Assembly: GCA_903933815.1 (NCBI GenBank)
Contig: CAIZLN010000017.1
Span: 1-53,154, forward strand
Reading direction: 5' to 3'
Source of the DNA: an uncultured Solirubrobacterales bacterium
GTDB lineage: Bacteria > Actinomycetota > Thermoleophilia > Solirubrobacterales > 70-9
DNA length: 53,154 nt
Shown here piece by piece: positions 10,951 to 47,424 of this stretch. The notes beneath the pieces are model-generated. The model did no database searches. It saw only the letters and a program-made list of their open reading frames with translations, and was not told the DNA's origin. A program made the translations under genes and the position numbers. The number at the start of each line of letters is the position of its first letter. Position 1 is the stretch's first letter.

Positions 10951-10978
10951 TCTGACTCGTCGGCCTGCTGCCTTAAGC
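10951..10978 (+). promoter_or_regulatory. Predicted leaderless promoter of gcvT
   Basis: TAAGCT (10973-10978) fits the TAnnnT -10 pattern and ends 7 nt before the GTG at 10986, so transcription would begin at or next to the start codon. CTGACT (10951-10956), 16 nt upstream, is a partial -35 match. There is no ribosome site between the box and the start. I saw no glycine-riboswitch core in the 179-nt gap. Confidence 0.5.
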
Positions 10979-10985
10979 TGATCGG

Positions 10986-12083
10986 GTGAGTACTCCCTCG
11001 ACACAGGCGCGAACCACTCCACTTCACGCAATTCATGTCGAGGCAGGGGCAAAGATGGTTGACTTCTCCGGCTGGGAGATGCCGGTCTATTACGACGGGA
11101 TTCGTGAGGAGCACGTCGCAGTTCGGACTCACGCCGGGATCTTCGATGTCTCCCACATGGGTCAGATCGAGGTCGAGGGGCCAGGCTCACTCGCCTTCCT
11201 TCAGCGTTTGCTCAGCAACGACATCTCGAGGATCCAGGTCGGCGGAGCCCAGTACTCGATGCTCCTGAACGACGAGGCGGGCGTTGTCGACGATCTGTTC
11301 GTCTACCGCCTGGGGGGTGACCGCTACCTGGTGGTCACCAATGCCGGTAACCACCAGACCGATCTCCTCCACTTCGGGATTGTCTCGCGCGGCTTCGATG
11401 TCCATGTGAGGGATGCCAGTGATAACTACGTGATGCTCGCGGTTCAGGGGCCAAATGCGCGGCGCACTCTTTCCGAGCAGATGCATCTGGAACTTCCGGA
11501 CAGGATGAAGGTGATCGCGCATCAGGTCGGCCGGAGGGCAGGGATCATCTGTGGCACCGGCTACACCGGTGAGGACGGGGTGGAGCTGCTGATCGATCCT
11601 GAAATCGCCCCGGCCGTCTGGGCCGAACTGGTGGATGTCGGCATTGTGCCGTGTGGTCTGGGCGCCCGGGACACCCTGCGCCTGGAGGCCTGTTACCACC
11701 TCCATGGCAATGACCTCTCAACCGAAATAGATCCGATCTCGGCCGGTCTCGGCTGGGCCTGTGTCGAGTCAACCGGGTTCATCGGTTCCGACCGGGTGGC
11801 CGCCCTGAGGGCCGGTGGCACCGACGAGACGCTGGTTCCGTTTCTGATCGAAGGCGAGGGCATACCCCGGGCCGGTAACTCGGTGATGCTGGGCGAGGAG
11901 ACCGTGGGCGAAGTGAGCAGCGGCACCTTCTCGCCATCGCTGGGTTCAGGGATCGGTATGGCCTATGTCAGGAGCGACCTGATCAGCCCCGGAACGCTGC
12001 TCGCGGTGGATGTGCGGGGAAAGCGTCGGACGGCGCGCGTAAGCTCCAAGCCTCTTTACACGAAGGTGAAACAGGAGACCTGA
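10986..12083 (+). CDS. gcvT: Glycine cleavage system T protein (aminomethyltransferase)
   Basis: GcvT takes the aminomethyl group carried by lipoyl-GcvH, releases ammonia and passes the one-carbon unit to tetrahydrofolate. The 365-aa protein starts with the typical TPLHAIHVEAGAKMVDFSGWEMPV and continues with GIFDVSHMGQ, TGYTGEDGVEL and GLGARDTLRLEACYHLHGNDL, which distinguish true GcvT from YgfZ-type relatives. The C-terminal barrel ends normally. The GTG start is supported by the -10 box 7 nt upstream. It heads a compact four-gene unit gcvT-gcvH-gcvPA-gcvPB; gcvH begins 2 nt after the gcvT stop. Confidence 0.95.
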   Translation: MSTPSTQARTTPLHAIHVEAGAKMVDFSGWEMPVYYDGIREEHVAVRTHAGIFDVSHMGQIEVEGPGSLAFLQRLLSNDISRIQVGGAQYSMLLNDEAGVVDDLFVYRLGGDRYLVVTNAGNHQTDLLHFGIVSRGFDVHVRDASDNYVMLAVQGPNARRTLSEQMHLELPDRMKVIAHQVGRRAGIICGTGYTGEDGVELLIDPEIAPAVWAELVDVGIVPCGLGARDTLRLEACYHLHGNDLSTEIDPISAGLGWACVESTGFIGSDRVAALRAGGTDETLVPFLIEGEGIPRAGNSVMLGEETVGEVSSGTFSPSLGSGIGMAYVRSDLISPGTLLAVDVRGKRRTARVSSKPLYTKVKQET

Positions 12084-12085
12084 CG

Positions 12086-12472
12086 ATGTCCGAGCCAAGC
12101 TATCCAGAAGACCTCCGCTACCACCCGGAGCACGACTGGGCCCGCATCGACGGCGGGGAGGCCACGCTCGGAATCACCTGGTACGCACAGGATGCCCTGG
12201 GCGAGGTCGTCTTCTACGACGGCCCGGAGGTCGGCGCGGAGGTCAGCAAGGACCAGCCGTATGCCGAGGTCGAATCAGTCAAGGCGGTATCCGACGTGAT
12301 CGCGCCACTTTCGGGCGAGGTCATCGCGGTCAACGAGAGTCTGGCCGATGCCCCCGAGGCGGTCAACGCTGACCCATACGAGACCGGCTGGATGGTCAAG
12401 ATCCGGCTCAGCGAACCGTCCGAGGTCGACTCTCTGCTGGATTCAGCAAGCTACGCGGCGTCGCTGGAGTAG
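12086..12472 (+). CDS. gcvH: Glycine cleavage system H protein
   Basis: GcvH is the lipoyl carrier that shuttles the aminomethyl intermediate between the P, T and L proteins. The 128-aa protein contains the lipoylation region VESVKAVSD (Lys about residue 66) and the C-terminal NADPYETGWMVKI, both standard. GAAACAGGAGACC gives a good ribosome site before the ATG. It lies between gcvT and gcvPA with very short gaps, so stoichiometric expression from one transcript is likely. No L protein (dihydrolipoyl dehydrogenase) gene is in the window; it is normally shared with other complexes and encoded elsewhere. Confidence 0.96.
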   Translation: MSEPSYPEDLRYHPEHDWARIDGGEATLGITWYAQDALGEVVFYDGPEVGAEVSKDQPYAEVESVKAVSDVIAPLSGEVIAVNESLADAPEAVNADPYETGWMVKIRLSEPSEVDSLLDSASYAASLE

Positions 12473-12476
12473 TCCG

Positions 12477-13922
12477 ATGGCCGGGTACACACCTGCCACT
12501 GGTCCCGACCGCGAGGCGATGCTCGATGCGATCGGGGTCGACTCGATCGACCAGCTCTTCGAGCAGGTTCCGGAGGAGGTCCGACTGAACCGCCCTCTGG
12601 CGCTCGAGGACGGGCTCAGTGAATCCGAGGTCTACTCCCGGATGGCGGAGCTTGCGTCGAAGAACCGTAACCCCGAAGGGGACCCGGGCTTTCTCGGGGC
12701 CGGCATGTACGACCACTACGTGCCGGCGATCGTCGACGCGATCACCAGCCGGTCTGAATTCCTGACCCCGTACACGCCGTACCAGCCCGAGGTCTCCCAG
12801 GGCGGCCTCCAGGTGATGTTCGAGTTCCAGACTGCGATGTCGGAAATCACCGGCCTGCCGGTCTCAAACGCGGGCCTCTACGAAGGGCCTTCGGCCGCTG
12901 CTTCGGCCGCCTACCTGGCGATGGCGGTCACCGGCCGCAACGGCCTGGTCGCCTCGCGCGGCATACATCCGCACAGCCGGGAGACCCTCGCCACACACGC
13001 AGTCGGATTCGGTGCGGAGCTGAGCGAAGTCGGCCTTGAAGACGGCCTGACCGACGCTGCCGCGCTCGAGGCCGCGATCGGTGAAGACACCGCTGCCGTA
13101 TTTCTCCAGAACCCGAACTTTCTCGGATCGGTCGAGGACATCGCCCGGCTCGGCGAGTTCGCCTCCGCCCGCGGCGCACTGGTCGTGGTTGCGGTCGACC
13201 CGATGACCCTGGGCGTGCTCAGGCCACCCGGCGAATGCGGCGCTGACATCGCATTTGGCGAGGGCCAGCCGCTCGGCAACAGGCTTGACTTCGGCGGGCC
13301 GTCCTTCGGGTTCTTCTGTGCGCGGGAGGAGTACCTGCGCAAGATGCCGGGCCGGATCGCCGGCCAGACTGAAGACGTCGATGGCAGGCGGGGTTTCGTG
13401 CTCGCCCTCCAGACCCGTGAGCAGCACATCCGCCGGGAGAAGGCAACCAGCAATATCTGCACCTCCCAGGCCCTGAACGCTCTGGCCGGCGTTATCCACC
13501 TTTCCTGGCTCGGCAAGGCGGGATTCGTCGAGATCGGGGAGATGCTGGCCCGGAGAACCGCCTTCGCCCGTCGCCGGATCGCGGCGATCGACGGCTTCGA
13601 ACTGCTTCACGACGCCCCGGTGGTTCGTGAGTTCGCGGTGCGCTCGACCTCCGTGCCGGTGGAAGCACTGCGCTCCGGCGCCGACGCCACGGGCTCACGG
13701 CTTCAGGTCTACCCGCTCGGCCGCGATTACCCCGAGTTCGAGGACGGCTTTCTTGTCGCCCTCACCGAGCAGCGTGACGTGAAGGACATCGAGTGGCTCT
13801 GTGCCGCCCTGGAGCGCAGCGCAGCGGCCGGAGCCTCTGAGCCGGCGACATCCTCCGGTGCGGCGGGAACTCAAACGCCACCGGCCGACACGGCGGCGCC
13901 GAAGCTGAGGCTGGCCTCGTGA
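12477..13922 (+). CDS. gcvPA: Glycine dehydrogenase (decarboxylating) subunit 1
   Basis: This is the N-terminal half of the split P protein, which decarboxylates glycine with PLP and loads the aminomethyl group on GcvH. The protein begins with the family sequence of this subunit (GVDSIDQLFEQVPEEVR) and contains FLGAGMYDHYVPAIVD and TPYQPEVSQGGLQ, with QEHIRREKATSNICT-type residues later in the chain. The ATG at 12477 is 4 nt after the gcvH stop; the frame is open further upstream only because it overlaps gcvH. Length is 481 aa. The last 35 or so residues are an Ala/Pro/Ser-rich tail outside the family core. GTGA overlaps the partner gene, as expected for a complex. Confidence 0.95.
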   Translation: MAGYTPATGPDREAMLDAIGVDSIDQLFEQVPEEVRLNRPLALEDGLSESEVYSRMAELASKNRNPEGDPGFLGAGMYDHYVPAIVDAITSRSEFLTPYTPYQPEVSQGGLQVMFEFQTAMSEITGLPVSNAGLYEGPSAAASAAYLAMAVTGRNGLVASRGIHPHSRETLATHAVGFGAELSEVGLEDGLTDAAALEAAIGEDTAAVFLQNPNFLGSVEDIARLGEFASARGALVVVAVDPMTLGVLRPPGECGADIAFGEGQPLGNRLDFGGPSFGFFCAREEYLRKMPGRIAGQTEDVDGRRGFVLALQTREQHIRREKATSNICTSQALNALAGVIHLSWLGKAGFVEIGEMLARRTAFARRRIAAIDGFELLHDAPVVREFAVRSTSVPVEALRSGADATGSRLQVYPLGRDYPEFEDGFLVALTEQRDVKDIEWLCAALERSAAAGASEPATSSGAAGTQTPPADTAAPKLRLAS

Positions 13923-15442
13923 GCTCCGCCACGCTGACAGAGACTCCCCAGCAGGCCGAGCGGGCCGAGACGATTTATGAGAAGTCAGTCCCCGGACGTC
14001 GCGCTGCCCAGCTTCCGCCCAGTGGGGTCGGCGAGACCCCGATCGAGGAGCTGATTCCGGCCGGCCTGCTTCGGGAGACCCCGGCCGAGCTGCCGGAGGT
14101 TTCCGAGCCGGAGATCATCCGCCATTACAACCGGCTCTCACGCCGGAACTTCGACCTCGACACCGGCTTCTACCCGCTTGGCTCCTGCACCATGAAGTAC
14201 AACCCGCGGCTCAACGAACGGGTCGCCGCGCTGCCGGGCAACGCCAGACTCCACCCGGCGGCCGAGCCGGAGGACGCCCAGGGCGCGCTCGAGCTGATGT
14301 ACCTGCTGCAGGAGTCGCTGGGCGAGATCTGCGGCCTGCCTCACGTGAGCCTCCAGCCTTCGGCCGGTTCCCAGGGCGAGCTGGCGGGACTGCTTCTGAC
14401 CCGTGCCTACCACGCGGACCGCGGCCGCAATCCGCGCAAGGTGCTGACCCCCGACACCGCCCACGGCACCAACCCGGCATCGGTCACCATGGCCGGCTAC
14501 GAGGTGGTCAAGGTCGCGACCAACGAAGACGGCGGGGTGGACATCGACGACCTGCGCTCGAAGGTCGATGAAGACGTCGCCTGTCTGATGCTGACCAACC
14601 CGAACACACTCGGCGTGTTCGACTCGAACATCGTCGAGATCGCCGGTCTGGTCCACGATGCCGGCGGCCTGCTCTACTACGACGGTGCCAACCTGAACGC
14701 GATCATGGGCCAGGCCAGACCGGGTGACATGGGCTTCGACATCGTCCACGTCAACCTGCATAAGTCCTTCTCTCAGCCTCACGGCGGCGGCGGGCCGGGC
14801 GCCGGTCCGATCGCCGTATCCGACCGGGTCGAGCCGTTCATCCCGAGGCCGCAGGTGGTCCGGGTGGCCGACGGCGAAGGTGGCTGGAAGTACGACCTCG
14901 ATGAAGACAGGCCGAAGTCGATCGGCCGGATGCGCGGATTCCAGGGCAACTTCGGAGTATTCGTGCGCTCCTACGCCTACATCCTCAGCCTCGGTGGAGA
15001 CGGCCTGAGCGAAGCCTCAAGGCTGGCGGTGCTGAACGCGAACTACCTCAAGCAGCGCCTCTCCGAAGGCCGGGCAGGAAAGTACCTGCCGGTCGGGTTC
15101 GACCGCCACTGCATGCACGAGTTCGTGCTCTCCGGCGCGCCGATGAAGAAGCAGCTCGGGATTCGGACACTCGACCTGGCCAAGCGCCTGCTCGACTTCG
15201 GCTTTCATCCGCCGACCGTCTACTTTCCGCTGCTGGTCGATGAGGCCCTGATGGTAGAACCGGTCGAGACCGAGAGCAAAGAGGTCCTCGACTCCTTCGC
15301 AGACGCAATCGAGAAGATCCTCGAGGAGGCCGAGCGGGACCCGGCGATCGCCACAGAGGCGCCGTACACGACCCCGGTGCGCCGGCTGGACGAAGTCGCT
15401 GCCAGCCGCAACCCGGTGATCCGCCAGCCCAAGCCCGAGTAG
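13919..15442 (+). CDS. gcvPB: Glycine dehydrogenase (decarboxylating) subunit 2
   Basis: This is the PLP-carrying half of the split glycine decarboxylase. The PLP lysine sits in NLHKSFSQPHGGGGPG, and upstream are GSCTMKYNPR and DTAHGTNPASV, all diagnostic. The 507-aa length is normal, with a short variable N-terminal segment of about 20 residues. The GTG start overlaps the gcvPA stop by 4 nt, so translation of the two subunits is coupled. The gene ends the gcv unit; trpS follows 29 nt later with its own predicted promoter. Confidence 0.96.
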   Translation: MSSATLTETPQQAERAETIYEKSVPGRRAAQLPPSGVGETPIEELIPAGLLRETPAELPEVSEPEIIRHYNRLSRRNFDLDTGFYPLGSCTMKYNPRLNERVAALPGNARLHPAAEPEDAQGALELMYLLQESLGEICGLPHVSLQPSAGSQGELAGLLLTRAYHADRGRNPRKVLTPDTAHGTNPASVTMAGYEVVKVATNEDGGVDIDDLRSKVDEDVACLMLTNPNTLGVFDSNIVEIAGLVHDAGGLLYYDGANLNAIMGQARPGDMGFDIVHVNLHKSFSQPHGGGGPGAGPIAVSDRVEPFIPRPQVVRVADGEGGWKYDLDEDRPKSIGRMRGFQGNFGVFVRSYAYILSLGGDGLSEASRLAVLNANYLKQRLSEGRAGKYLPVGFDRHCMHEFVLSGAPMKKQLGIRTLDLAKRLLDFGFHPPTVYFPLLVDEALMVEPVETESKEVLDSFADAIEKILEEAERDPAIATEAPYTTPVRRLDEVAASRNPVIRQPKPE

Positions 15443-15457
15443 AACCCCGGTTCGCTC

Positions 15458-15463
15458 TAGAGT
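15458..15463 (+). promoter_or_regulatory. Predicted leaderless -10 box of trpS
   Basis: TAGAGT fits TAnnnT and ends 8 nt before the ATG at 15472. The intervening bases TGGCCGCG contain no ribosome site. I see no clear -35 box. Confidence 0.45.
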
Positions 15464-15471
15464 TGGCCGCG

Positions 15472-16467: not shown

Positions 16468-16508
16468 ACTGTGTCCGGGAATCAGCATTCAGGTAAGAAC
16501 CAGAGCGT

Positions 16509-16679: not shown

Positions 16680-16685
16680 TAGCCT
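16680..16685 (+). promoter_or_regulatory. Predicted leaderless -10 box of scpA
   Basis: TAGCCT ends 6 nt before the GTG at 16692. A first GTG at 16686 directly abuts the box and would fall before the transcription start, so the second GTG is preferred. The -35 region is unclear; CTGACA at 16652-16657 is too far upstream. Confidence 0.4.
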
Positions 16686-18117: not shown

Positions 18118-18123
18118 TAGGTT
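18118..18123 (+). promoter_or_regulatory. Predicted leaderless -10 box of rluB
   Basis: TAGGTT ends 6 nt before the ATG at 18130, with TCGGCA between and no ribosome site. No clear -35 box. Confidence 0.42.
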
Positions 18124-25227: not shown

Positions 25228-25233
25228 ATCCTA
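25228..25233 (-). promoter_or_regulatory. Predicted leaderless -10 box of the PlsC-like gene
   Basis: On the reverse strand TAGGAT ends 6 nt before the ATG whose A is at 25221, with CCTCCG between. No ribosome site and no clear -35 box. Confidence 0.42.
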
Positions 25234-27294: not shown

Positions 27295-27300
27295 TAGGCT
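27295..27300 (+). promoter_or_regulatory. Predicted leaderless -10 box of metK
   Basis: TAGGCT ends 7 nt before the ATG at 27308, with GCCGGGA between. It favours that ATG over the GTG at 27290. No clear -35 box. No SAM riboswitch is possible in this space because der ends at 27289. Confidence 0.42.
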
Positions 27301-30532: not shown

Positions 30533-32590
30533 TCAGCCCGCCCCGGCGATCTGGTCCTTGGCGGCCTCGACCACGCGGTCGGGCGTGAAGCCGAAGAACT
30601 TCTGCAGGTCCTTGAACGGGGCGGATGCACCGAAGGTGGTCATGCCGATCATCGTGCCGTTCTCGCCCACATACCTCTCCCAGCCCATGGTCGAAGCCTG
30701 TTCGATCCCCACTCTGGCCGTCACTGAAGACGGAAGCACTGACTCGCGGTACTCCTCGCCCTGAGAGTCAAAGATGAACCAGGACGGCAGGCTTACCACG
30801 CGTGAGTTGATTCCCTCGATTACCAGCGTCTCGTGGGCCTCCAGGGCCACATGGACTTCACTGCCGGTGGCAATCAGAATCACGTCGGGCTTGCCATCAC
30901 AGTCTGCGATCACGTAGCCGCCCCGGGCCAGTCCTGAGGCCGATCCGTACTTCTCGCGGTCGATCACTGGCACGTTCTGTCGGGTCAAAACCAGTGCCGT
31001 CGGCTGTTCTTTGCGGGGCATGATCACCTTCCAGGCTTCCGCGACTTCATTGGCATCGGCTGGCCGGATCACGTCGAGCTGAGGGATCGCGCGCAGAGAC
31101 GCAAGCTGCTCCACCGGCTGGTGGGTGGGTCCGTCTTCCCCGAGGCCGATCGAGTCATGGGTGAGCCAGTGGACTACCGGCTGCTCCATCAGAGCCGAGA
31201 GGCGGATCGCCGGTCGAGCGTAGTCGGAGAAGATCAGGTAGGTGGACCAGACCGGTCGCATCCCGCTGAGTGCCATCCCGTTGGCCATGGCGGCCGACTC
31301 GTGCTCACGCACGCCGAGGTGAATGCCGTGGCCGGAGCGTGAGCCTGGCTCGAACACCCCGGAAACCTCTGGGGAGAGACCGCTTGAGGCCGATCCCGTG
31401 AGGTCCGCCGAGCCGCTCATCAGCCAGGGCACACGGGGAGCGATTGCGTTCAGCGTCTTCTGGGCCGCCTTGCGCGTGGCAATCTGGTCACCGGTATCGA
31501 AAGACGGGATGTCGGAGTCCCATCCTTCAGGCAGGTCCCCGGCAAGCATCAGACCAATGTCCTTGCGCGTTTCCGGGGAGGCGGCATCGAACTTCTGACG
31601 CCAGGCCGCACTCAGTCTGGCGCCACGGGCGCCGATCCCGTTGCTGAAGTTGGGGTAGACGCCGTCGGGGACGAGAAAGTGGGCATCCTCGGGCCATCCG
31701 TATGCCTCTTTGGTCAGGATGGTCTCCGCAGCACCGAGCGGGTTGCCGTGCACGTCGGCCGTGTCGACCTTGTTTGGCGAGCCATACCCGATGTGACTGT
31801 GGACGATGATCATCGTCGGACGGTCCTTCTCGGCCTTGAACCCGTCCAGTGCCCGGCCGATTTCGTCGAGGTCGTTGGCGTCGTGTACGTGGTGCACGAC
31901 CCAGCCGTTGGCCTGGAAGCGGGCATCAACATCCTCAGTGAAAGCGAGGTCGGTGCTGCCGTCGATGGTGATCCTGTTGCTGTCGTAGATCCAGCAGAGA
32001 TTGTGGAGCTGCTGGTGACCGGCCAGGGATGCCGCCTCCTGGGATACGCCTTCCATCAGGTCGCCGTCACCGCAGACGGTGTAGACGTCGTAGTCGAAGA
32101 GGTCCTCGCCGAAGACCGAACGCTTCCAGAGGCCGGCGACAGCCATGCCGACCGAGGTCGCCACGCCCTGGCCGAGCGGCCCGGTCGTGGTCTCGACGCC
32201 GGTGGTGATGTGGGACTCCGGGTGGCCGGGGGTCGATGAGCCGAGCTGGCGGAAGTTCCTGATGTCTTCGAGGCTGATCGAGGGCTCGTCGAGCACGGTT
32301 CCGTCGTGGTCGACCTTCCTGACGCCAGCGAGGTGGATCAGCGAGTAAAGGAGCATCGAAGCGTGACCGGCCGAGAGCACGAAGCGGTCCCGGTTGGGCC
32401 AATGCGGGTCGGCGGGGTCGTAGCGCAGGTAGTCCTGCCAGATCTTGAGCCCCAGCGGGGCGAGCGCCATCGCCGTCCCCGGGTGTCCGGAGTTGGCCCT
32501 GTCGATCGCGTCGATCGAAAGGGTCCGGATGGTGTTGATGCTCAGCTGGTCAGGACTCTGGGATTCAAGGGTGTCGGTCACGCGCGGCAT
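30533..32590 (-). CDS. tkt: Transketolase
   Basis: Transketolase moves two-carbon ketol units in the pentose phosphate pathway with TPP. It supplies erythrose-4-P, a substrate of AroF encoded elsewhere in this window. Motifs in order are [14 protein letters not shown] (N-terminus), [13 protein letters not shown] (TPP/Mg binding) and, in the pyrimidine domain, SGSADLTGS and [17 protein letters not shown], then [24 protein letters not shown]. Length is 685 aa. The ATG has no strong ribosome site (GTTAGG immediately before). The gene lies 83 nt downstream of the PH-domain gene and 4 nt before pgi, so at least tkt-pgi form an operon. Confidence 0.96.
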
Positions 32591-32673
32591 CCTAACGCGA
32601 TTGCGACAGGATCATGATCACGTACGGTGAACACCGGTCGGACCTTCGGCAGGTGGTTGATCACGCTTCCGGC

Positions 32674-33177
32674 TCAGTAGCTGTCACTGGGGTGACCGAG
32701 TCCGTGTGACCCGGCAGCCCCGGCGGAGGTGGCTTTGTCGACCTGGGTGACTACTTCCTGAGGGTTGGCCACCCCGCTGAATACAAAGGTGTTCTCCGCA
32801 TCCGAGGCGGTGTCGAAATCGACAGACCCGACATTGAGCATGCGCTCGAAGGCAGTCTGGCTGTAGCTGACATTCTGCACGCGCTCGAGGCGGGTTTCCT
32901 GAATGTCGCGGGCGACAATCCCCCGTTTGATGTTCAGGCGGCGGTTGGTGATCGTGTAGATCGTGGCCATTCGCCTCACAAAGCCGATAACTACGGTGAA
33001 TCCAAGCACCACCAGCAGGATCATGAAGATGGCAAAGAAGCCCTGACCGACCAGCTTGGCGACCAGCGCGATAACGATTGCGATCAGCAGGCCCTTCAGG
33101 TAGAAGGCGAGGATCGAGCGCCAGGAGGGATGCCCCTGGAAGATGATCTGCTCACCCGGACTGGGAGTGAATGACAT
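32674..33177 (-). CDS. PH-domain (bPH2/YdbS-like) membrane protein
   Basis: The 167-aa protein has a short N-terminus (SFTPSPGEQIIFQGHPSWRS), two close hydrophobic spans at about residues 22-62, and then a bacterial PH-like domain. Its family pattern is YTITNRRLNIKRGIVARDIQETRLERVQNV, followed by FERMLNVGSVDFDTA, which matches DUF304/bPH_2. The biochemical role of the family is not well defined. The start is ATG with its A at 33177; the longer open frame to 33276 overlaps the divergent priA promoter. It is transcribed away from priA and towards tkt. Confidence 0.82.
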   Translation of the reverse strand: MSFTPSPGEQIIFQGHPSWRSILAFYLKGLLIAIVIALVAKLVGQGFFAIFMILLVVLGFTVVIGFVRRMATIYTITNRRLNIKRGIVARDIQETRLERVQNVSYSQTAFERMLNVGSVDFDTASDAENTFVFSGVANPQEVVTQVDKATSAGAAGSHGLGHPSDSY

Positions 33178-33184
33178 GCCGGCC

Positions 33185-33190
33185 AGCATA
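33185..33190 (-). promoter_or_regulatory. Predicted leaderless -10 box of the PH-domain gene
   Basis: On the reverse strand TATGCT ends 7 nt before the ATG at 33177. It lies in the 91-bp divergent gap shared with priA. Confidence 0.45.
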
Positions 33191-33256
33191 TTCGACCTCG
33201 GTGGGCCGTGGGTGACGGAATCTGCCGCCGGGCTTCGCCCCGTCCGGCCCTGGTCG

Positions 33257-33262
33257 TACCTT
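33257..33262 (+). promoter_or_regulatory. Predicted leaderless -10 box of priA
   Basis: TACCTT ends 6 nt before the GTG at 33269, with TGGCTG between. It supports that start over longer alternatives. Confidence 0.45.
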
Positions 33263-33268
33263 TGGCTG

Positions 33269-35455
33269 GTGTCCATCGCCAGGGTCGAGCCGCTGACGAC
33301 GGCCCGCGCTCTGCGGGGCCCGTTCGATTACCTGATACCTGATCGCCTCCCCGGGATCGACATCGGCACCGTGCTTGAGGTTCCGTTCGGACCCCGTCGG
33401 ATCACCGGCGTGGTCGTTGGGCTCGCGGCTACCTCGGAGGTTCCACCCGGGAAGCTGGCCGAACCGATCCGGATCCTTGGTACCGGTACGACACCGGAGC
33501 TGGTCGATCTCGGAATGTGGATCGCCCGCGAGTACTGTTCGACTCCGGCTCGGGGGGTCGGGCTGATGCTTCCTCCGGGAACTGGCACCGGTGGCCAGCG
33601 CACCAAGGCCAGGACCGAGACCCTGAGCCGGATCACCGAGCTCGGAAGAGCGGCCCTCGAGGACGGCAGCAGGCTGGGGGAGAAGCAGCGTCTTGCCCTG
33701 CGGTCCCTGCTCGAAGGTGAAATGACCGGACGGGAACTGATGGCGCGGGCTGCGGCCGACGCTTCTACCCTGAAGCGGCTTGAGTCCAGAGGCCTGATCG
33801 AACGCGAGCAGATCCGGGTCCGCAGACGTCCTGACTCTGGAACCATTGGAAGCGCCAGCGTCTCTGCGCCAGCCCTGACGGCAGACCAGCGGGCTGCCGT
33901 CTCCCGCCTGAACGATGCTGTCGACTCCGGTGTCGGGCAGGAGTTCCTGCTCGCCGGGGTCACCGGGTCCGGGAAGACCGAGGTCTACCTCGCCGCGGTC
34001 GAACACGCTCTTGCCCTCGGGCGCACCGCAATCGTTCTGGTGCCGGAAATCGGACTGACCCCCCAGGCGGTTGGTCGGTTCGAGGCGCGGCTGGGAGATC
34101 GAGTGGCGGTGCTTCACTCGGCGCTCTCGGCCGGGCAGAGGTTTGATGAGTGGCAGCGGCTCAAGAGCGGCGAGGCAACTGTCTGCGTCGGCCCGCGCTC
34201 GGCAATCTTTGCTCCGCTCATGAACCTCGGCCTGATCGTCGTAGACGAGGAGCACGATCCCTCCTACAAGCAGGAGAGCGACCCCCGGTACGACGCCCGC
34301 TCAGTCGCCCGCCGCAGATCCGCACAAAACGGCGCCTTGCTGATTCTCGGCACAGCAACCCCGCGGCCGGAGACCTGGCGGGACTTCGAGAGGATCGAAC
34401 TCCCCGACAGGGTGGACGGCCTCGGCATGCCACCGGTCGAAGTCATCGACATGCGCCTGGCCGATCCCCGGGGAGGACCGATACATCCCTCGACTTTCGA
34501 GGCTCTCAGCCAGGTCAGGAGTGAGGGCGGCAAAGCGATTGTGATGATCAACCGTCGTGGCTTTGCGCCCTGGCTGACCTGTCGCACATGCGGCCACCAC
34601 TGGGGCTGCCCGAACTGTGATGTCTCACTCATCGTCCACCGTGAGTCCGGTCAGCTCATCTGTCACCACTGCAGCCACGCCGAACCGTTGCCGCGCAGTT
34701 GTGGGGAATGCGGAGGTACCACGCTGGCTCAGTCCGGTGCCGGCACTCAGCGGATCGAGCGGCTCCTGGCAGAGGCAATGGATCCGATGCCGGTCTTCAG
34801 GCTGGACGCTGATACCAGTGCCGGACCTGGTGGTCACGGAAGGGTTCTGAGTGCGTTCGACCAGGCCGACAGTGCAATTCTGGTTGGAACTCAGATGGTG
34901 GCCAAGGGCCACGACTTCCCCGAGGTGACCCTGAGCGTAATCCTCGACGCTGACGCGACCTTGCGGTTCCCTGATTTCCGAGCCGAAGAGAGAACCTTTT
35001 CTCTGGTCACCCAGCTGGCCGGCCGGAGCGGCCGGGGTGCCGCCGGCGGCCGCGTGATCGTCCAGACTCTGGCGCCCGATGCCGCCAGTATCCGCGCGGC
35101 GTCCAAACACGACTCACCCGGATTCCTGGCCGGGGAACTGGTCCGACGCGAGGAGCTTGCCTACCCGCCCTTTTCGAGCCTCATCCGGATAGTTCTGGCG
35201 GCCGAAGACGAAGCGGCTCTGGATCGTGCTGCGGCAGAGGTCGCCACGCAGGTCGGTGAAGCCCTCCCCGGGGAGGCATCGATGCTGGGCCCGGCACCGA
35301 TGTTCAGGGCCAGAAACCGGTTCCGTCGGAGGTTCCTGATCAAGACGACCGCCCGCGAGCAGACCGTGGGTGCAGTCCACGAGACGGTCGAGAACATGCT
35401 CGCTGACCGTGTCTTCCGAGGAATCGTGCTCAGCATCGACGTTGACCCGCAGTAG
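33269..35455 (+). CDS. priA: Primosomal protein N' (replication restart helicase PriA)
   Basis: PriA reloads the replisome at stalled forks. The 728-aa protein has the N-terminal DNA-binding domain (VEPLTTARALRGPFDYLIP, VPFGPRR), a Walker A GVTGSGKTEVYL and Walker B VVDEEHDPSYKQ. A Cys-rich insertion (CRTCGHHWGCPNCDVSL, CHHC, CGECGG) binds zinc, and helicase motifs follow, including GTQMVAKGHDFP and QLAGRSGRG. All helicase motifs appear intact; in several Actinobacteria PriA has lost ATPase residues, but not here as far as I can see. GTG 33269 is preferred because of the -10 box; the frame is open back to 33143. Confidence 0.93.
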   Translation: MSIARVEPLTTARALRGPFDYLIPDRLPGIDIGTVLEVPFGPRRITGVVVGLAATSEVPPGKLAEPIRILGTGTTPELVDLGMWIAREYCSTPARGVGLMLPPGTGTGGQRTKARTETLSRITELGRAALEDGSRLGEKQRLALRSLLEGEMTGRELMARAAADASTLKRLESRGLIEREQIRVRRRPDSGTIGSASVSAPALTADQRAAVSRLNDAVDSGVGQEFLLAGVTGSGKTEVYLAAVEHALALGRTAIVLVPEIGLTPQAVGRFEARLGDRVAVLHSALSAGQRFDEWQRLKSGEATVCVGPRSAIFAPLMNLGLIVVDEEHDPSYKQESDPRYDARSVARRRSAQNGALLILGTATPRPETWRDFERIELPDRVDGLGMPPVEVIDMRLADPRGGPIHPSTFEALSQVRSEGGKAIVMINRRGFAPWLTCRTCGHHWGCPNCDVSLIVHRESGQLICHHCSHAEPLPRSCGECGGTTLAQSGAGTQRIERLLAEAMDPMPVFRLDADTSAGPGGHGRVLSAFDQADSAILVGTQMVAKGHDFPEVTLSVILDADATLRFPDFRAEERTFSLVTQLAGRSGRGAAGGRVIVQTLAPDAASIRAASKHDSPGFLAGELVRREELAYPPFSSLIRIVLAAEDEAALDRAAAEVATQVGEALPGEASMLGPAPMFRARNRFRRRFLIKTTAREQTVGAVHETVENMLADRVFRGIVLSIDVDPQ

Positions 35456-35478: not shown

Positions 35479-35484
35479 TAAACT
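35479..35484 (+). promoter_or_regulatory. Predicted leaderless -10 box of def
   Basis: TAAACT ends 8 nt before the ATG at 35493 with CGTCTTCG between and no ribosome site. No clear -35 box. Confidence 0.48.
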
Positions 35485-38468: not shown

Positions 38469-38474
38469 GATAAT
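38469..38474 (+). promoter_or_regulatory. Predicted leaderless -10 box of the zinc-ribbon gene
   Basis: GATAAT differs from TATAAT at one position and ends 6 nt before the GTG at 38481. Confidence 0.42.
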
Positions 38475-41856: not shown

Positions 41857-41864
41857 GAGTCAGT

Positions 41865-41870
41865 CAAGAT
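41865..41870 (+). promoter_or_regulatory. Predicted leaderless -10 box of ribD
   Basis: CAAGAT ends 6 nt before the ATG at 41877 (TGTCAC between). It has A and T at the key positions but C in place of the first T. The whole divergent gap is 20 bp, so no FMN riboswitch fits upstream of the riboflavin operon. Confidence 0.35.
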
Positions 41871-41876
41871 TGTCAC

Positions 41877-43031
41877 ATGAGTTCCGATCGACCATCTGCC
41901 GAGGCCCGTTTCTGGGACAGAGCCGCCGAGCTGGCGGTTCACGGTCACGGGCTGGTCAGCCCCAACCCGATGGTCGGTGCGGTGCTGGTCAAGGACGGCG
42001 TGGTGATCGGTGAGGGCTGGCATCGCGCATACGGCGGGCTTCACGCCGAACGGGAAGCCATCAACGACGCGAAGGGTCGCGGAGAGAGCGTCGAAGGCTC
42101 GACCATCTTCGTCACCCTCGAGCCTTGCGGCCATACCGGCAGGCAGCCTCCCTGCGCTGACGCATTGATCGAGGCTGGCGTCGCCGAAGTGGTCTATGCC
42201 TGCGAAGACCCGACTCAAAAGACTGCAGGTGTCGGGCCGGAGCGGCTGCGCCAGGCCGGCATCGCGGTCCGCCGTGCCGAACCTGGCGTCGCGGCAGATG
42301 CCCGCGGATTGATCCAGGATTTTCTCAAGATGGCGGCCACCGGCCGTCCGCTGCTCATCCTGAAGCTCGCGATGAGCCTCGACGGCAAGGTCGCCACCAG
42401 CAGCGGCGACTCACGCTGGATATCCGGCCCGGAGAGTCGCAGCATGGTTCACCGCTGGCGTGCGGATCTCGACGCCGTTGCGGTCGGTGCAGGAACCTTC
42501 ACGGCTGACGATCCGCGGCTGACCGCCCGGCTCGAGCCAGCCGGGGACGATCCTGAAGCCGGGCCCGAACCGGTCAGGCAGCCGGTCCGGGTGGTGTTCG
42601 ATTCCGGCCCCGTCGTCACTCCCGGGGCGGCGCTGTTCGAAGACATCGACTCTGCCCCGGTGCTGCTGGTCACCGGGCCTGGAGCCGACCGCAAACGTCT
42701 TGCCGAACTGGAACAGGCAGGCGCCGAGGTGCTGGCAACCGGGTCAGGCAGCCGCCGGGAGCGTTTTCTTGAAGCCATGGACCTGATCGGCGAGCGGGGG
42801 ATCGGATCGATCCTGCTGGAAGGAGGACCGACCCTGGCTGGCATCGCCCTTGACTCCGGGGAGGTTGACCGGTTCGAGGCGTTCGTCGCGCCGATCCTGC
42901 TTGGCGGTGGACTGTCTGCTGTCACCGGGGACGGACCGTTGAAGATGGCCGATGCCATTGCCGTCCGGAACATGCAGGTGGGCCGAGTCGGTCAGGATGT
43001 ACACATGAGCGCCCGACTGAAAGTGTGGTGA
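41877..43031 (+). CDS. ribD: Bifunctional riboflavin deaminase/reductase RibD
   Basis: RibD deaminates the pyrimidine intermediate and then reduces its ribosyl side chain. The N-terminal zinc deaminase domain has NPMVGAVLVKDG, HAERE (His ligand and catalytic Glu) and PCGHTGRQPPCADALIEAG (two Cys ligands). The C-terminal reductase begins LILKLAMSLDGKVATSSGDSRWI and includes ILLEGGPTLAG. Length is 384 aa. It heads the unit ribD-ribE-ribBA-ribH, with ribE only 3 nt downstream. Confidence 0.95.
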   Translation: MSSDRPSAEARFWDRAAELAVHGHGLVSPNPMVGAVLVKDGVVIGEGWHRAYGGLHAEREAINDAKGRGESVEGSTIFVTLEPCGHTGRQPPCADALIEAGVAEVVYACEDPTQKTAGVGPERLRQAGIAVRRAEPGVAADARGLIQDFLKMAATGRPLLILKLAMSLDGKVATSSGDSRWISGPESRSMVHRWRADLDAVAVGAGTFTADDPRLTARLEPAGDDPEAGPEPVRQPVRVVFDSGPVVTPGAALFEDIDSAPVLLVTGPGADRKRLAELEQAGAEVLATGSGSRRERFLEAMDLIGERGIGSILLEGGPTLAGIALDSGEVDRFEAFVAPILLGGGLSAVTGDGPLKMADAIAVRNMQVGRVGQDVHMSARLKVW

Positions 43032-43034
43032 GCC

Positions 43035-43670
43035 TTGTTCTCCGGACTGATAGGCGACCTTGGTCGTCTGGCTGAGATCTCCCAGGGGCCCGAGGGTGCC
43101 CGGCTCAGGGTAGAGACATCGCTGTCGGGTGAAATCGAAACCGGCGACTCGATTGCCGTGAACGGCACCTGCCTGACCGCTACAACGGTCGAGCCGGCCG
43201 GTTTCACGGCCGACGCGATGAACCAGACTTTGGAAATGACCTCGCTGGGCGCACTTGAAACCGGCGATCCGCTCAACCTCGAGTTGGCACTGCGTGCGGG
43301 GGACCGGCTCGGCGGCCACATCGTTCAGGGGCATGTTGACGGTGTGGGCGTAGTGGTCTCGGCCGAGCCGGACGGCTTTTCGCTGCGGCTCAGGATCAAG
43401 CTGAGCAAGGAACTTCTGCGCTACGTGATCCCTCAGGGATCGATCACCCTCGAAGGGGTGAGTCTGACCGTGGCTGATTCGAAAGACGACTGGATCGAGG
43501 TGTCGCTGATTCCCGAGACTCGTGAGCGCACCAGCCTCGGCTCACTGAAGCCCGGCAGGGCGGTGAACGTCGAGTGTGACGTAATCGCACGATACGTCGA
43601 GAGAATGGTGTCACCATATGGTTCAGAGGCAGCGTTTCAGCCCGGCCCCCTCAAACAGAACGGTGAGTGA
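43035..43670 (+). CDS. ribE: Riboflavin synthase alpha subunit
   Basis: RibE dismutates two lumazine molecules to riboflavin. The 211-aa protein has the two lumazine-binding repeats: residues 1 to about 95 ([19 protein letters not shown]) and about 96-190 ([23 protein letters not shown]). The start is TTG 43035, the family N-terminus MFSGL being encoded exactly there. The C-terminal 20 or so residues are polar and variable. The stop overlaps a GTG in the frame of ribBA (GTGAGTGA). Confidence 0.94.
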
Positions 43671-43674
43671 ACAG

Positions 43675-45057
43675 ATGTCCAGCAGTGAGCGGCTACCGTC
43701 AGGCAACGTGACTGAGGCAGACAGCCCGTTTGCCACTATCGAGGAGGCCCTCGAGGACATCAGGCGCGGCCGCATGGTCGTAGTTGCCGACGACGAGGAC
43801 CGCGAGAACGAGGGCGATCTGGTGATGGCCGCGCAGTTCGTGACGCCGGAGGCGATCAACTTCATGGCCAAGGAGGGTCGAGGACTGATCTGTCTGGCCC
43901 TCACCCCGCAGCGCTGTGACCAGCTCGGCCTGAGTTTGATGACGGCCAAGAACGAGGCACCTCTGGAGACGGCTTTCACCGTTTCCATCGAAGCCGCCGA
44001 AGGGGTGACCACTGGAATCTCTGCCGCCGACCGTTCACAGACGATTCAGGTGGCGATCGACCCCGACTCGACCCCGCGGGACATCGTCGTGCCCGGCCAC
44101 GTCTTCCCGCTGAAGGCCAAGGAGGGCGGCGTACTCGAGCGCACCGGCCACACCGAGGCCAGCGTGGACCTGGCACGCCTCGCCGGACTCAACCCCTCGG
44201 GAGTCATCTGCGAGGTAATGAATGAAGACGGGACCATGGCGCGGATCGACGACCTGACCGGGTACGCCGCGCGGCATGACCTGAAGATGGTCACAATCGC
44301 CGACCTGATTGCCTACCGGCGTGAGAATGAAAAGCTGGTCGAACGCGTGGTCTCCACGGCACTGCCCACCTCATTCGGTGACTTCCGGGCCGTCGGTTAC
44401 CGCTCACTCGTAGACGACAAGCACCATGTCGCGATGGTCAAGGGAGAAGTGGACACCGGTGAGCCCGTGCTGGTCCGGGTCCACAGCGAATGCCTGACCG
44501 GCGATGTCTTCCACAGCATGCGCTGTGACTGCGGTGAGCAGCTGGCTGCCGCCCTCGGGATGATTGAGGAAGAGGGCCAGGGAGTTCTGCTCTACCTCTC
44601 GCAGGAGGGTCGTGGAATAGGCCTGCTGAACAAGCTTCGCGCCTACAAGCTCCAGGAAGAGGGACTCGACACGGTGGATGCCAACCTCAAGCTCGGCCTG
44701 CCCGCCGACCTCAGGGATTACGGCATCGGTGCTCAGATCCTCAGGGACCTCGGGTTGCGCGACATACGCATCCTGACCAACAACCCGAAAAAGATAATCG
44801 GGCTGGAGGGGCACGGTTTGCGGGTGACCGAGCAGATTCGGATAGAGGCCCCGCCGAATCTCCACAACGAGGCTTACCTGCAGACCAAGCGGGACAGAAT
44901 GGGTCACATCCTCCACCATCAGGGACTGGCCCTCGACGAGGAGATGATCCACGGCGAGGAAGTCAGCGACCGGGAGAAGCTCGATGACGATCAGAGGCCT
45001 GGTCGTCGCGAAGCCGAAAGCCCGGCTGATTCGCGGGGATCCGCCACTGATGCCTGA
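43675..45057 (+). CDS. ribBA: Bifunctional DHBP synthase / GTP cyclohydrolase II
   Basis: The two halves start the two branches of riboflavin synthesis. The N-terminal DHBP synthase shows the acidic metal site [13 protein letters not shown] and [14 protein letters not shown]. The C-terminal GTP cyclohydrolase II shows [23 protein letters not shown] with the three zinc Cys, then [13 protein letters not shown]. Start options are ATG 43675 with GGTGAG 7 nt before it (460 aa), or GTG 43663 in an 8-nt overlap with ribE. I list the ATG. A tail of about 30 polar residues overlaps the 5' side of ribH. Confidence 0.94.
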
Positions 45058-45490
45058 CCAGCGCTACGCCATCTGCATCGGCAGCTTCTATGAGGACCTG
45101 GCCGAGCGTCTTGTCGCCGGTGCCCGTGCCGAGTTCGGCCGGGCCGGCGTGGGGGAGGGAAACATCGAGGTCTTTGAGGTGCCCGGAGCCTTCGAGCTGC
45201 CGCTTGCCGCACATTTCTGCGCTACCTCCGGCAAGTTCGACGGGGTCGCCTGTCTCGGTGCGGTAATCCGGGGCGAGACAGACCATTACGACTTTGTTTG
45301 TGGAGAAGCCGCCCGCGGAATCCAGAACGTTCAGCTGGCCACAGGCGTGCCTTGCGGCTTTGGTGTGCTGACCGTTGACAACATGGATCAGGCTCTGGCC
45401 CGGACCGGTGGTGGAAAGCGCGATCAGGGCGCTGGTGCCGCCCGCGCCGTCCTGCGGATGAACGAGATACGTACTTCCCTGGCCGGCTGA
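45050..45490 (+). CDS. ribH: 6,7-dimethyl-8-ribityllumazine synthase
   Basis: RibH condenses the two branch products into lumazine and usually forms a 60-mer or decamer. Motifs are [35 protein letters not shown] (catalytic His) and [16 protein letters not shown]. With ATG 45050 (8-nt ATGCCTGA overlap with ribBA) the protein is 146 aa. ATG 44984 is an alternative with a better ribosome site (GGGAGAAG) but adds 22 residues unlike the family. It is the last gene of the riboflavin unit. Confidence 0.93.
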
Positions 45491-45524
45491 GCTGCGCCCG
45501 GCGTCAGCCGGACGGGCTTTCGGT

Positions 45525-45530
45525 TAGAGT
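45525..45530 (+). promoter_or_regulatory. Predicted -10 box of rpmB (near-leaderless)
   Basis: TAGAGT ends 10 nt before the ATG at 45541, so the mRNA leader would be only about 3-4 nt. No ribosome site is visible. Confidence 0.4.
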
Positions 45531-45540
45531 GCTCAACTCA

Positions 45541-45732
45541 ATGGCACGCGTATGTCACACCTGCGGTAAAGGCCCGTCCTTTGGCAACTCCCGGAGCCAC
45601 TCAATGATCGCTACCAGGCGACGGTTCAACGCGAACCTTCAGAAGGTTCGCATCGTGGAGGATGGCTCGCGCAAGCGGGTGAATGTCTGTACCCGCTGCC
45701 TCAAGGCAGACAAGGTCACCAAGGCCGCCTGA
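45541..45732 (+). CDS. rpmB: 50S ribosomal protein L28
   Basis: L28 is a 63-aa basic ribosomal protein. The sequence starts [15 protein letters not shown], includes [18 protein letters not shown] and ends [10 protein letters not shown]. The two CxxC pairs make this the zinc-binding (C+) form. ATG 45541 matches the usual family N-terminus; a GTG at 45529 is in frame but overlaps the proposed -10 box. The rpmB-yloV-recG-rsmD-coaD order downstream is conserved in many Gram-positive bacteria. Confidence 0.96.
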
Positions 45733-45775
45733 CTCTGTCCGTTCCGTTTCGGGCGGGTTTGTCCGGGTATCCCTG

Positions 45776-45781
45776 TAGGCT
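45776..45781 (+). promoter_or_regulatory. Predicted leaderless -10 box of the fakA-like gene
   Basis: TAGGCT ends 8 nt before the GTG at 45790, with CGCCGACT between. No ribosome site. Confidence 0.45.
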
Positions 45782-45789
45782 CGCCGACT

Positions 45790-47424
45790 GTGGCTGACCC
45801 AAGCATCGAACGGTTCAGACGGGTAGTTGCGTCTGCCTACGGATCCCTCGAGGCCCGCCGGCAGGAGGTCAACGACCTGAACGTCTACCCGGTCGCCGAC
45901 GGCGACACCGGGGAGAACATGGCTCAGACGATGCGGGCGGTGATGGAAGAACTCGACCGCCTTGATGACGGTCGTTCGCTCGATGAGATCGGGCGCACCC
46001 AGCTCGTGTCGGCTCTTGCCCGTGCGGCACTCATGGGCGCGCGGGGCAACTCCGGGGTCATCCTCAGTCAGATCGTCCGCGGGGCTGCCGAAGAGCTGGC
46101 GTCCCGGCCTGGTGAGCTGGTCGACCCTGTCCTTGTTGCCTCAGCCTTCGGTCGGGCGGCGGATGCCGCCTACGCTTCCGTCACGGAGCCGGCAGAAGGG
46201 ACAATGCTGACCGTCTTCAGGGAAATGGCCCACTCGATCTCCCGGCAGCTCGCCCACACGGAGGCCGGCCGCCAGCGACTCAGTCCTGATGCCACGCCGG
46301 AGGAGCAGGACCGGCTCCTGGCTGATGTGCTCGAGCAGGCGATCGCCGATGGCCAGAAGGCTGTTGAGCGGACTACCGAGCAGCTCGATGTACTCGCTGA
46401 GGCCGGAGTGGTTGACGCTGGCGGCTACGGACTCGTCCTGATCCTGGCTGGCGTGCTCGCTGCACTGCGTGGGGAGGACTCCGCACTGCCGGAGATCGAC
46501 CACCACGCTCCGCCCCGCCTCAGCCAGCCCCATCACGAAGACAGCAGATATCAGTACTGCACAAACTTCATCGTCTCCGGTTCGGGCCTGATCAGCCGCG
46601 ACTTCGTCGGCAGTCTCGAGGAGATCGGGGATTCAGTTCTCGTGGTCGGTGACGAAGCGACACTCAAGGTCCACGTTCACACAGACGACCCCGAATCAGC
46701 CATGGAGATCTTCAGCTCTGCGGGTCAGGTGACCAACCTCGACGTTGCCGACATGCGCAGGCAGGTGGCCGAGCGGCAGGCCCGGATGGCCGGTCATCGC
46801 ACCGGGGTCGTGGTCGTCTCCTGTGGGGAGGGGATGCGCTCGCTCTTTTCCAGTCTCGACGTCCATGTCGTCGACGGTGGCGAGACCCTCAACCCTTCGA
46901 CATCCGAGCTCCTGGCAGGCATTCGGGAAGTGCCTACGCCAGCGGTGATAGTCCTGCCGAGTTCCTCCAATGTGATCATGGCGGCGGAGCGGGCCTGTGA
47001 GCTGTCCGAGAAAAAGGCAATGGTCATCCCGACCAGGACCCAGCAGGCAGGGTTGCTTGCGCTGATCGAGTTCGATCCGGAACTCGATATCGATGAGAAC
47101 CAGGCGAGGTTGACGGCAGCCGTAGCCGAGACCACCACCGGAGGGATCGCACCGGCTGCGAGAGATGACGGTGCCGGGCGATTCCGGAGGGGTGACGCGG
47201 TCGGCTTCGTCGGTGACGAGATAGTCGCCTGGGGTGGCGCGGGCTCGACCCTCGCGACAACGATCGAGAAGATTGCCGCCGATGCAGAGATAATTACCGT
47301 GATCGCCGGCGAAGGCGCCCCGATCCCGCTCGACGAACTGGGCGATCACGTGCCTGACGGAGTTGAGCTCGAAGCCCATGAAGGTGGGCAGCCGAGTTGG
47401 TGGTGGCTGCTGGCCGGCCAGTAG
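45790..47424 (+). CDS. fakA: DAK2-domain protein, fatty acid kinase catalytic subunit-like (YloV/FakA)
   Basis: The N-terminal 200 or so residues form a DhaL/DAK2 domain with the hallmark LNVYPVADGDTGENMAQTM (Asp ligands for Mg-ATP) and LMGARGNSGVILSQI. The rest, about 340 residues, corresponds to the middle and C-terminal parts of YloV/FakA proteins (NFIVSGS, HVHTDDPESAMEIF). In Firmicutes FakA phosphorylates FakB-bound fatty acids. That role here is inferred from family membership. No fakB/degV gene is in the window. Length is 544 aa. It precedes recG, with which it overlaps by about 28 nt or less, depending on the recG start. Confidence 0.88.
   Translation: MADPSIERFRRVVASAYGSLEARRQEVNDLNVYPVADGDTGENMAQTMRAVMEELDRLDDGRSLDEIGRTQLVSALARAALMGARGNSGVILSQIVRGAAEELASRPGELVDPVLVASAFGRAADAAYASVTEPAEGTMLTVFREMAHSISRQLAHTEAGRQRLSPDATPEEQDRLLADVLEQAIADGQKAVERTTEQLDVLAEAGVVDAGGYGLVLILAGVLAALRGEDSALPEIDHHAPPRLSQPHHEDSRYQYCTNFIVSGSGLISRDFVGSLEEIGDSVLVVGDEATLKVHVHTDDPESAMEIFSSAGQVTNLDVADMRRQVAERQARMAGHRTGVVVVSCGEGMRSLFSSLDVHVVDGGETLNPSTSELLAGIREVPTPAVIVLPSSSNVIMAAERACELSEKKAMVIPTRTQQAGLLALIEFDPELDIDENQARLTAAVAETTTGGIAPAARDDGAGRFRRGDAVGFVGDEIVAWGGAGSTLATTIEKIAADAEIITVIAGEGAPIPLDELGDHVPDGVELEAHEGGQPSWWWLLAGQ

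What the first reader, a model, noticed from the sequence alone, without database searches (positions are those of the whole stretch)
10973..45792. Widespread leaderless-transcript signature: TAnnnT box 6-8 nt before start codons
I read upstream of each gene that seems to start a transcription unit. A TAnnnT or near-identical box ends 6-8 nt before the start codon of gcvT, trpS, scpA, rluB, the PlsC-like gene, metK, the PH-domain gene, priA, def, the zinc-ribbon gene (GATAAT), ribD (CAAGAT) and the fakA-like gene. rpmB and the SepIVA-like gene have it at 10 nt. A bacterial -10 box lies about 7 nt before the transcription start, so these mRNAs would begin at the AUG/GUG. Shine-Dalgarno sites are missing at these genes but present at internal or leadered genes (murG, scpB, aroF, DUF177, the repeat protein). 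At this GC content a TAnnnT should be rare by chance. Leaderless mRNAs are known in Mycobacterium and Streptomyces; a density this high in a lineage of this kind deserves mapping. It also resolves several start codons.
Basis: partly seen in the sequence, partly recalled or inferred. Interest (0 to 1): 0.7.

Follow-up and report, generated by a model that had tools for sequence, protein, structure and literature searches.

The report
Leaderless genes marked by TANNNT boxes
In this uncultured actinobacterium many genes carry a minimal promoter box placed so that the messenger RNA should start at the start codon itself, an arrangement well known in actinobacteria that is here traced through a little-studied order.

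Summary
In 501,555 bp of the window's genome (a quarter of a 2.03 Mb Solirubrobacterales MAG), TANNNT followed by an ATG/GTG that opens a long ORF peaks at 6, 7 and 8 nt, first of 64 xyNNNz patterns at each, with or without the window. With starts called blind to the motif, 66 of 429 genes have the box at 6-8 nt against 8.2 in shuffles; SD-like 5-mers occur in 1 of these 66 and in 73 of 363 others. Boxes are conserved at orthologous starts: priA 16/16, PH-domain gene 16/16, transketolase 12/12, scpA 18/21, but metK 2/6; operon-internal fmt, rsmB, pgi 0/31. These are most likely -10 elements of leaderless or nearly leaderless mRNAs; no RNA 5' end was measured. The density is ordinary: Zheng 2011 reports the signal in 86 of 89 actinobacterial genomes, average 19.2%. 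Less expected: no -35 signal was found, and RbpA, which helps mycobacterial polymerase at promoters without a -35, has no Pfam match in this genome or 24 relatives. CarD is present.

The parts
10974..10979 (+). TAAGCT -10 box, 6 nt before GTG 10986 (gcvT)
   Evidence: orthologues 16 of 22 at 6-8 nt, 5 more at 9-11; Pfam GCV_T
15458..15463 (+). TAGAGT -10 box, 8 nt before ATG 15472 (trpS)
   Evidence: Pfam tRNA-synt_1b; conservation not tested (no trpS hit in the fetched loci)
16680..16685 (+). TAGCCT -10 box, 6 nt before GTG 16692 (scpA; the upstream GTG 16686 directly abuts the box)
   Evidence: orthologues 18 of 21 at 6-8, 1 more at 9-11; Pfam SMC_ScpA
18118..18123 (+). TAGGTT -10 box, 6 nt before ATG 18130 (rluB)
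   Evidence: orthologues 7 of 15; Pfam S4 + PseudoU_synth_2
25228..25233 (-). TAGGAT -10 box, 6 nt before ATG 25221 (PlsC-like acyltransferase)
   Evidence: Pfam Acyltransferase; 1 of 1 testable orthologue
27295..27300 (+). TAGGCT -10 box, 7 nt before ATG 27308 (metK)
   Evidence: orthologues 2 of 6 with box, 4 of 6 without; SD 5-mers in 4 of 6
32589..32594 (-).
   Evidence: orthologues 12 of 12; Pfam transketolase domains
33185..33190 (-). TATGCT -10 box, 7 nt before ATG 33177 (bacterial PH-domain gene), divergent from priA
   Evidence: orthologues 16 of 16; Pfam bPH_2
33257..33262 (+). TACCTT -10 box, 6 nt before GTG 33269 (priA)
   Evidence: orthologues 16 of 16; Pfam PriA domains
35479..35484 (+). 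TAAACT -10 box, 8 nt before ATG 35493 (def)
   Evidence: orthologues 9 of 11 at 6-8, 1 more at 9-11; Pfam Pep_deformylase
38469..38474 (+). GATAAT variant -10 box, 6 nt before GTG 38481 (zinc-ribbon gene)
   Evidence: TANNNT at 6-8 nt in 0 of 10 orthologues, but GATAAT 6-7 nt before a candidate start in 6 of 10 (L014, L016, L019, L020, L021, L028, by eye)
41865..41870 (+). CAAGAT possible variant -10 box, 6 nt before ATG 41877 (ribD)
   Evidence: TANNNT at 6-8 nt in 1 of 9 orthologues; CAAGAT 6 nt before an ATG in 4 of 9 (L014, L016, L027, L028), GAAGAT in L020 (by eye)
45525..45530 (+). TAGAGT -10 box, 10 nt before ATG 45541 (rpmB)
   Evidence: orthologues 14 of 17 at 9-11 only, 3 of 17 at 6-8; Pfam Ribosomal_L28
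45776..45781 (+). TAGGCT -10 box, 8 nt before GTG 45790 (fakA-like)
   Evidence: orthologues 14 of 21 at 6-8, 2 more at 9-11; Pfam FakA-like domains
50702..50707 (+).
   Evidence: no Pfam match; conservation not tested

Best explanation
The boxes are -10 promoter elements of the housekeeping sigma factor. RNA polymerase starts about 6-8 nt downstream of the box, which at these genes is the A or G of the start codon, so the mRNA has no 5' leader (or a leader of a few nt where the spacing is 9-11). A ribosome carrying initiator tRNA then engages the 5'-terminal AUG/GUG without a Shine-Dalgarno site; genes inside operons use Shine-Dalgarno sites more often. The arrangement is widespread in the genome and conserved in Solirubrobacterales. 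Shown here: position, enrichment, exclusion of SD, conservation. Inferred from known -10 geometry and from published work on mycobacteria: the sigma factor, the transcription start and the leaderless mode of translation.
For: Peak at 6-8 nt, rank 1 of 64 patterns at each spacing, also without the window. 66 of 429 motif-blind starts against 8.2 in shuffles. SD 5-mer in 1 of 66 box genes against 73 of 363 others. Divergent genes 29 of 124, genes less than 30 nt behind another 15 of 145. Conservation at orthologous starts, with 0/11, 0/11 and 0/9 in three operon-internal genes. Whole-genome counts TANNNT-N6-ATG against -N12-ATG: 177 against 67 here, excess at p<0.001 in 38 of 41 genomes (this one and 40 relatives). 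E. coli control 1 of 83. Same signal described by Zheng 2011 (passages) and TANNNT found before mapped starts in M. tuberculosis by Cortes 2013 (passages).
Against: No 5' end was measured. Further upstream promoters giving leadered mRNAs cannot be excluded for any gene. The home-made gene caller hit 48 of 83 annotated E. coli starts, so single start calls are uncertain. Among the listed genes rluB keeps the box in only 7 of 15 and metK in 2 of 6 orthologues, ribD has TANNNT in 1 of 9 and the zinc-ribbon gene in 0 of 10. Of five aroA orthologues, meant as a control, one has a box. The 15 of 145 boxes at closely following genes exceed the roughly 3 that the shuffles would give, so the box is not confined to what spacing would call starts of transcription units.
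Confidence: 0.92

Rival explanations
1. The boxes are promoter elements, but the principal mRNAs of these genes come from other, upstream promoters; leaderless mRNAs are minor products.
For: Some box genes lie close behind another gene (15 of 145 such genes), so read-through mRNA is likely for trpS and metK.
Against: SD 5-mers are nearly absent at box genes (1 of 66), and most boxes tested are kept at orthologous starts, which suggests that they matter for expression.
Confidence: 0.05
2. TANNNT at 6-8 nt is a signal for translation within a longer leader, not a promoter box.
For: Its position is fixed relative to the start codon and it stands where SD sites are missing.
Against: The consensus is the known actinobacterial -10 box at its known distance from the start of transcription (passages of PMC3160421 and PMC3898074). 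Divergent genes have it more often than closely following genes (29 of 124 against 15 of 145), as expected for a promoter.
Confidence: 0.02
3. Chance or composition effect, or circular choice of start codons by a reader looking for boxes.
For: The shuffles show that composition alone gives about 8 of 429, and some starts were chosen to fit (scpA, transketolase, PH-domain gene).
Against: Starts called blind to the motif give 66 against 8.2; the test without the window repeats it; 32 actinobacterial genomes with an N12 count of 500 or more show a mean N6/N12 ratio of 1.02, so the count itself does not make an excess.
Confidence: 0.01

Closest known systems
TA-led (leaderless) genes of Actinobacteria and Deinococcus-Thermus, Zheng et al. 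2011 (PMC3160421; passages seen)
   Same: TANNNT about 12 bp (first T) upstream of the start codon, taken as a promoter of leaderless genes, in high-GC genomes; average share of genes 19.2% in Actinobacteria (range 2.3-29.8); here 66 of 429 strict.
   Different: Conexibacter, Rubrobacter and Thermoleophil- do not occur in the main text (Solirubrobacterales was not looked for there). Here single boxes are also followed through orthologues.
Leaderless transcriptome of Mycobacterium tuberculosis, Cortes et al. 2013 (PMC3898074; passages seen)
   Same: TANNNT -10 box, no conserved -35 motif, about a quarter of genes with a primary start leaderless, half of the tRNA synthetase genes with a primary start among them (compare trpS).
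   Different: There start sites were mapped; here not. There no ribosomal protein gene was leaderless; here rpmB has a box at 10 nt, conserved, which would give a leader of a few nt. Mycobacteria have RbpA (PMC5302886, passages); none was found here.

Membership tests
Actinobacterial TANNNT-led leaderless genes | TANNNT with a positional peak about 12 bp (first T) before the start codon | tested here: met
Actinobacterial TANNNT-led leaderless genes | Shine-Dalgarno site absent at these genes | tested here: met
   5-mers in 1 of 66 against 73 of 363; looser 4-mers in 5 of 66 against 124 of 363 (the SD words are recalled)
Actinobacterial TANNNT-led leaderless genes | No conserved -35 element upstream of the box | tested here: met
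   TTGAC at 15-20 nt in 1 of 193 pooled box genes against 0.5 in shuffles; no column from -50 to -1 above 0.09 bits
Actinobacterial TANNNT-led leaderless genes | mRNA 5' end at or within 5 nt of the start codon | not testable with these tools
   no RNA data
Mycobacterial-type RbpA/CarD-assisted promoters without a -35 | RbpA encoded in the genome | tested here: not met
   PF13397: 0 of 25 genomes (this one and 24 relatives), positive control Corynebacterium glutamicum. Profile of 9 RbpAs: hits in 9 of 31 genomes, all at E 0.04-0.8; three of the nine were read and are zinc-ribbon-like proteins, six were not. The MAG is 94.7% complete
Mycobacterial-type RbpA/CarD-assisted promoters without a -35 | Stand-alone CarD encoded | tested here: met
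   In this genome the ORF L199:639-1103 matches CarD_C. CarD/TRCF RID domain in 25 of 25 genomes, but that family also matches TRCF

The most novel reading that the evidence does not exclude
Solirubrobacterales, and probably several other deep actinobacterial classes, run a large share of their genes from promoters that consist of little more than TANNNT, without a -35 element, without a leader and without RbpA. If so, RbpA is not what makes -10-only leaderless promoters possible in this phylum; it is a later addition, and CarD alone or a property of the sigma factor or polymerase does the job here.
Probability: 0.45. Interest if true: 0.55.

Novelty: new member of a known kind. Interest (0 to 1): 0.33.

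Why it matters
It suggests corrected start codons (scpA, transketolase, PH-domain gene) and a simple rule for annotating a mostly uncultured order. It also offers a natural test of what RbpA is for: work on mycobacteria ties RbpA to promoters without a -35 (PMC5302886, passages), yet 55 of 128 actinobacterial genomes outside this class that have no PF13397 match show an excess of the same signal.

Tried and rejected
Loss of the signature in genus g10: TANNNT-N6-ATG showed no excess in G026 (26 against 29) and G029 (33 against 31). I took it for a possible real loss, fetched 420,000 bp of G026 and found it an artefact of fixing spacing 6 and ATG: with called genes 34 of 353 starts have the box at 6-8 nt against 3.4 in shuffles, but the spacing runs from 6 to 11 and GTG starts are commoner than ATG. 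The counts can therefore miss genomes.

A -35 element: sought in 66 genes and in 193 pooled genes, some of them orthologous; none found. The one enriched string, GTCCG at -15, probably comes from the priA orthologues in the pool (inference).

A hidden RbpA: weak profile hits in G000, G002 and G016 are proteins beginning MPxYEYRC (FmdB-like zinc ribbons; name recalled, no family search done). The weak hits in G001, G004, G008, G026, G032 and G033 were not read (a G026 stretch, L198, was fetched and left unread).

RNA families or tRNA in the window as another explanation: no match.

No excess of the N6 count: G022 (46 against 24, p 0.006), G026 and G029 among 41 genomes; G054, G069 and G103 among 9 of the same class; 73 of 143 genomes of other classes. 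Threshold p<0.001 throughout.

Rows dropped before counts: genes at contig edges, with N or too near an end (16 of 445; 22 of 447), loci where the start could not be placed (for instance L027 for metK); seven of 90 annotated E. coli CDS (cut, joined or very short ones). Box counts leave out spacings 9-11 (7, 4 and 0 boxes).
Full report
What the window is. The window is contig C17 of a 2.03 Mb, 168-contig genome, 64% GC. The priA protein has 17 matching loci in the species collection: 14 in records titled Solirubrobacterales, one Thermoleophilia, one titled only Actinobacteria (63-76% identity), and one remote Desulfobulbaceae hit at 40%. Genes were identified with Pfam.

Checking the listed boxes. 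It adds transketolase (7 nt). Of its 25 rows the others mostly lie inside genes and look like chance. The two near matches, GATAAT at the zinc-ribbon gene and CAAGAT at ribD, are there as described.

Chance. I took 51 stretches of the same genome, 501,555 bp with the window. Of 1,158 TANNNT sites, 54, 31 and 22 have an ATG or GTG opening an ORF of 100 codons or more at 6, 7 and 8 nt. TANNNT is first of the 64 patterns xyNNNz at each of these three spacings and at one other of the 31 tested (27 nt, where it drops to fifth without the window). Without the window the counts at 6, 7 and 8 are 48, 28 and 18 of 1,029, again first. With a simple self-trained gene caller that ignores the motif, 445 genes were called; of 429 with usable starts, 66 have the box at 6-8 nt, against 8.2 in shuffled upstream sequence. 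The caller hit 48 of 83 annotated starts in 100 kb of E. coli, where 1 of the 83 annotated starts has a box at 6-8 nt. Wrong starts should hide boxes, so 66 of 429 is probably an underestimate (inference).

What goes with the box. SD-like 5-mers are found in 1 of 66 box genes and 73 of 363 others; looser 4-mers in 5 of 66 and 124 of 363. The box is at 29 of 124 divergent starts, 11 of 79 and 9 of 59 same-strand starts with gaps over 100 and of 30-100 nt, 15 of 145 starts less than 30 nt from the gene before, and 2 of 22 at contig edges. There is no -35 signal in 66 genes or in 193 pooled genes from five sets, some of them orthologous.

Conservation. Allowing any nearby in-frame start, TANNNT stands at 6-8 nt in orthologues of priA 16 of 16, the PH-domain gene 16 of 16, transketolase 12 of 12, scpA 18 of 21, gcvT 16 of 22, def 9 of 11, fakA 14 of 21, rluB 7 of 15, metK 2 of 6, ribD 1 of 9, the zinc-ribbon gene 0 of 10, rpmB 3 of 17 (14 more at 9-11), the acyltransferase gene 1 of 1. 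Operon-internal genes: fmt 0 of 11, rsmB 0 of 11, pgi 0 of 9; aroA 1 of 5; aroF had no testable orthologue. Eleven other xyNNNz patterns, given the same freedom, reach at most 0-3 at ten of the thirteen listed genes plus 4 at ribD, 6 at def, 7 at the zinc-ribbon gene and 8 at rpmB; their mean is 0-1.2. SD 5-mers stood before some candidate start in 7 of 9 ribD and 3 of 10 zinc-ribbon orthologues, which speaks against those two unless the far upstream candidates are wrong, as one search suggests for ribD. metK seems to switch between modes: boxes in L023 and L025, SD-like sequences in L016, L019, L020, L021 and L027.

Spread. Whole-genome counts of TANNNT-N6-ATG against TANNNT-N12-ATG (same reading frame) show an excess at p<0.001 in 38 of 41 genomes (this one and 40 relatives), in 6 of 9 other genomes of the class and in 70 of 143 genomes of other classes of the phylum. 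The 32 genomes with an N12 count of 500 or more have a mean ratio of 1.02; of 40 with fewer than 60, 38 have a ratio over 2. The apparent absence in genus g10 was an artefact of fixing spacing 6 and ATG. In G026 and G035 spacings 9-11 are common too (15 and 15 boxes, against 34 and 12 genes at 6-8).

What is known. Zheng 2011 describes this signal and its meaning, in 86 of 89 actinobacterial genomes with an average of 19.2% of genes (passages). Cortes 2013 mapped start sites in M. tuberculosis: TANNNT at 73% of primary starts, no -35 motif, about a quarter of genes leaderless (passages). A 2024 survey of SD sites (PMC10783764, passages) lists Thermoleophilia with 45 in a percent column. Searches for leaderless together with Thermoleophilia, Conexibacter, Rubrobacter, Solirubrobacter or Solirubrobacterales and with metagenome-assembled and Actinobacteriota showed no paper that treats leaderless genes in this group; two searches listed only 20 of 56 and 15 of 214 papers, I saw listings only except for PMC10783764, and the library lacks most subscription journals.

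The less expected part. In mycobacteria RbpA and CarD help polymerase at promoters without a -35 (PMC5302886, passages). The RbpA family PF13397 matches in none of 25 genomes (this one and 24 relatives), while the control C. glutamicum rings. A profile of nine RbpAs gave only weak hits (E 0.04-0.8) in 9 of 31 genomes; the three I read are zinc-ribbon-like proteins, six were not read. In the phylum sample 15 of 158 genomes have RbpA. All 15 show the N6 excess, but so do 55 of the 128 genomes of other classes without it. CarD-type domains are in 25 of 25 genomes (the family includes TRCF), and this genome has a CarD_C protein beside an ORF that looks like DisA (recalled). So -10-only leaderless-type promoters occur without detectable RbpA. 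I saw no paper on RbpA in these classes (listings, of which one search showed 10 of 268, and passages of PMC4255298).

Verdict. It is a new, largely conserved instance of a known kind, at normal density for the phylum.

Noticed in passing
window 33177-33269: priA and the PH-domain gene are divergent and both have conserved boxes (16 of 16 orthologues each), so 91 bp between two start codons hold two facing leaderless promoters.
   Followed up: partly
L046 11620-11659: A divergent pair with only 38 bp between the start codons; each has a TANNNT exactly 6 nt before its start, and the two boxes are 14 bp apart, so a -35 of either would fall on the other's box or start.
   Followed up: no
window 32581-32594: The transketolase box TAGGAT is followed by G, making an ATG that overlaps the box; the gene caller chose that ATG here and in several relatives, a likely source of wrong start annotation.
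   Followed up: partly
window 45525-45541 and orthologues in L131-L152: rpmB keeps its box at 9-11 nt (14 of 17; by eye 13 of them at 10) with similar letters between box and ATG, which suggests a fixed very short leader.
   Followed up: partly
G026 and G035 (family f3): Box-to-start spacing is broader than in the window's genome, with many at 9-11 nt.
   Followed up: partly
actinobacterial phylum sample (158 genomes): RbpA (PF13397) matches in only 15 of 158 genomes, in 6 of 48 families, although titles in the reference lists seen call it the actinobacterial transcription factor.
   Followed up: partly
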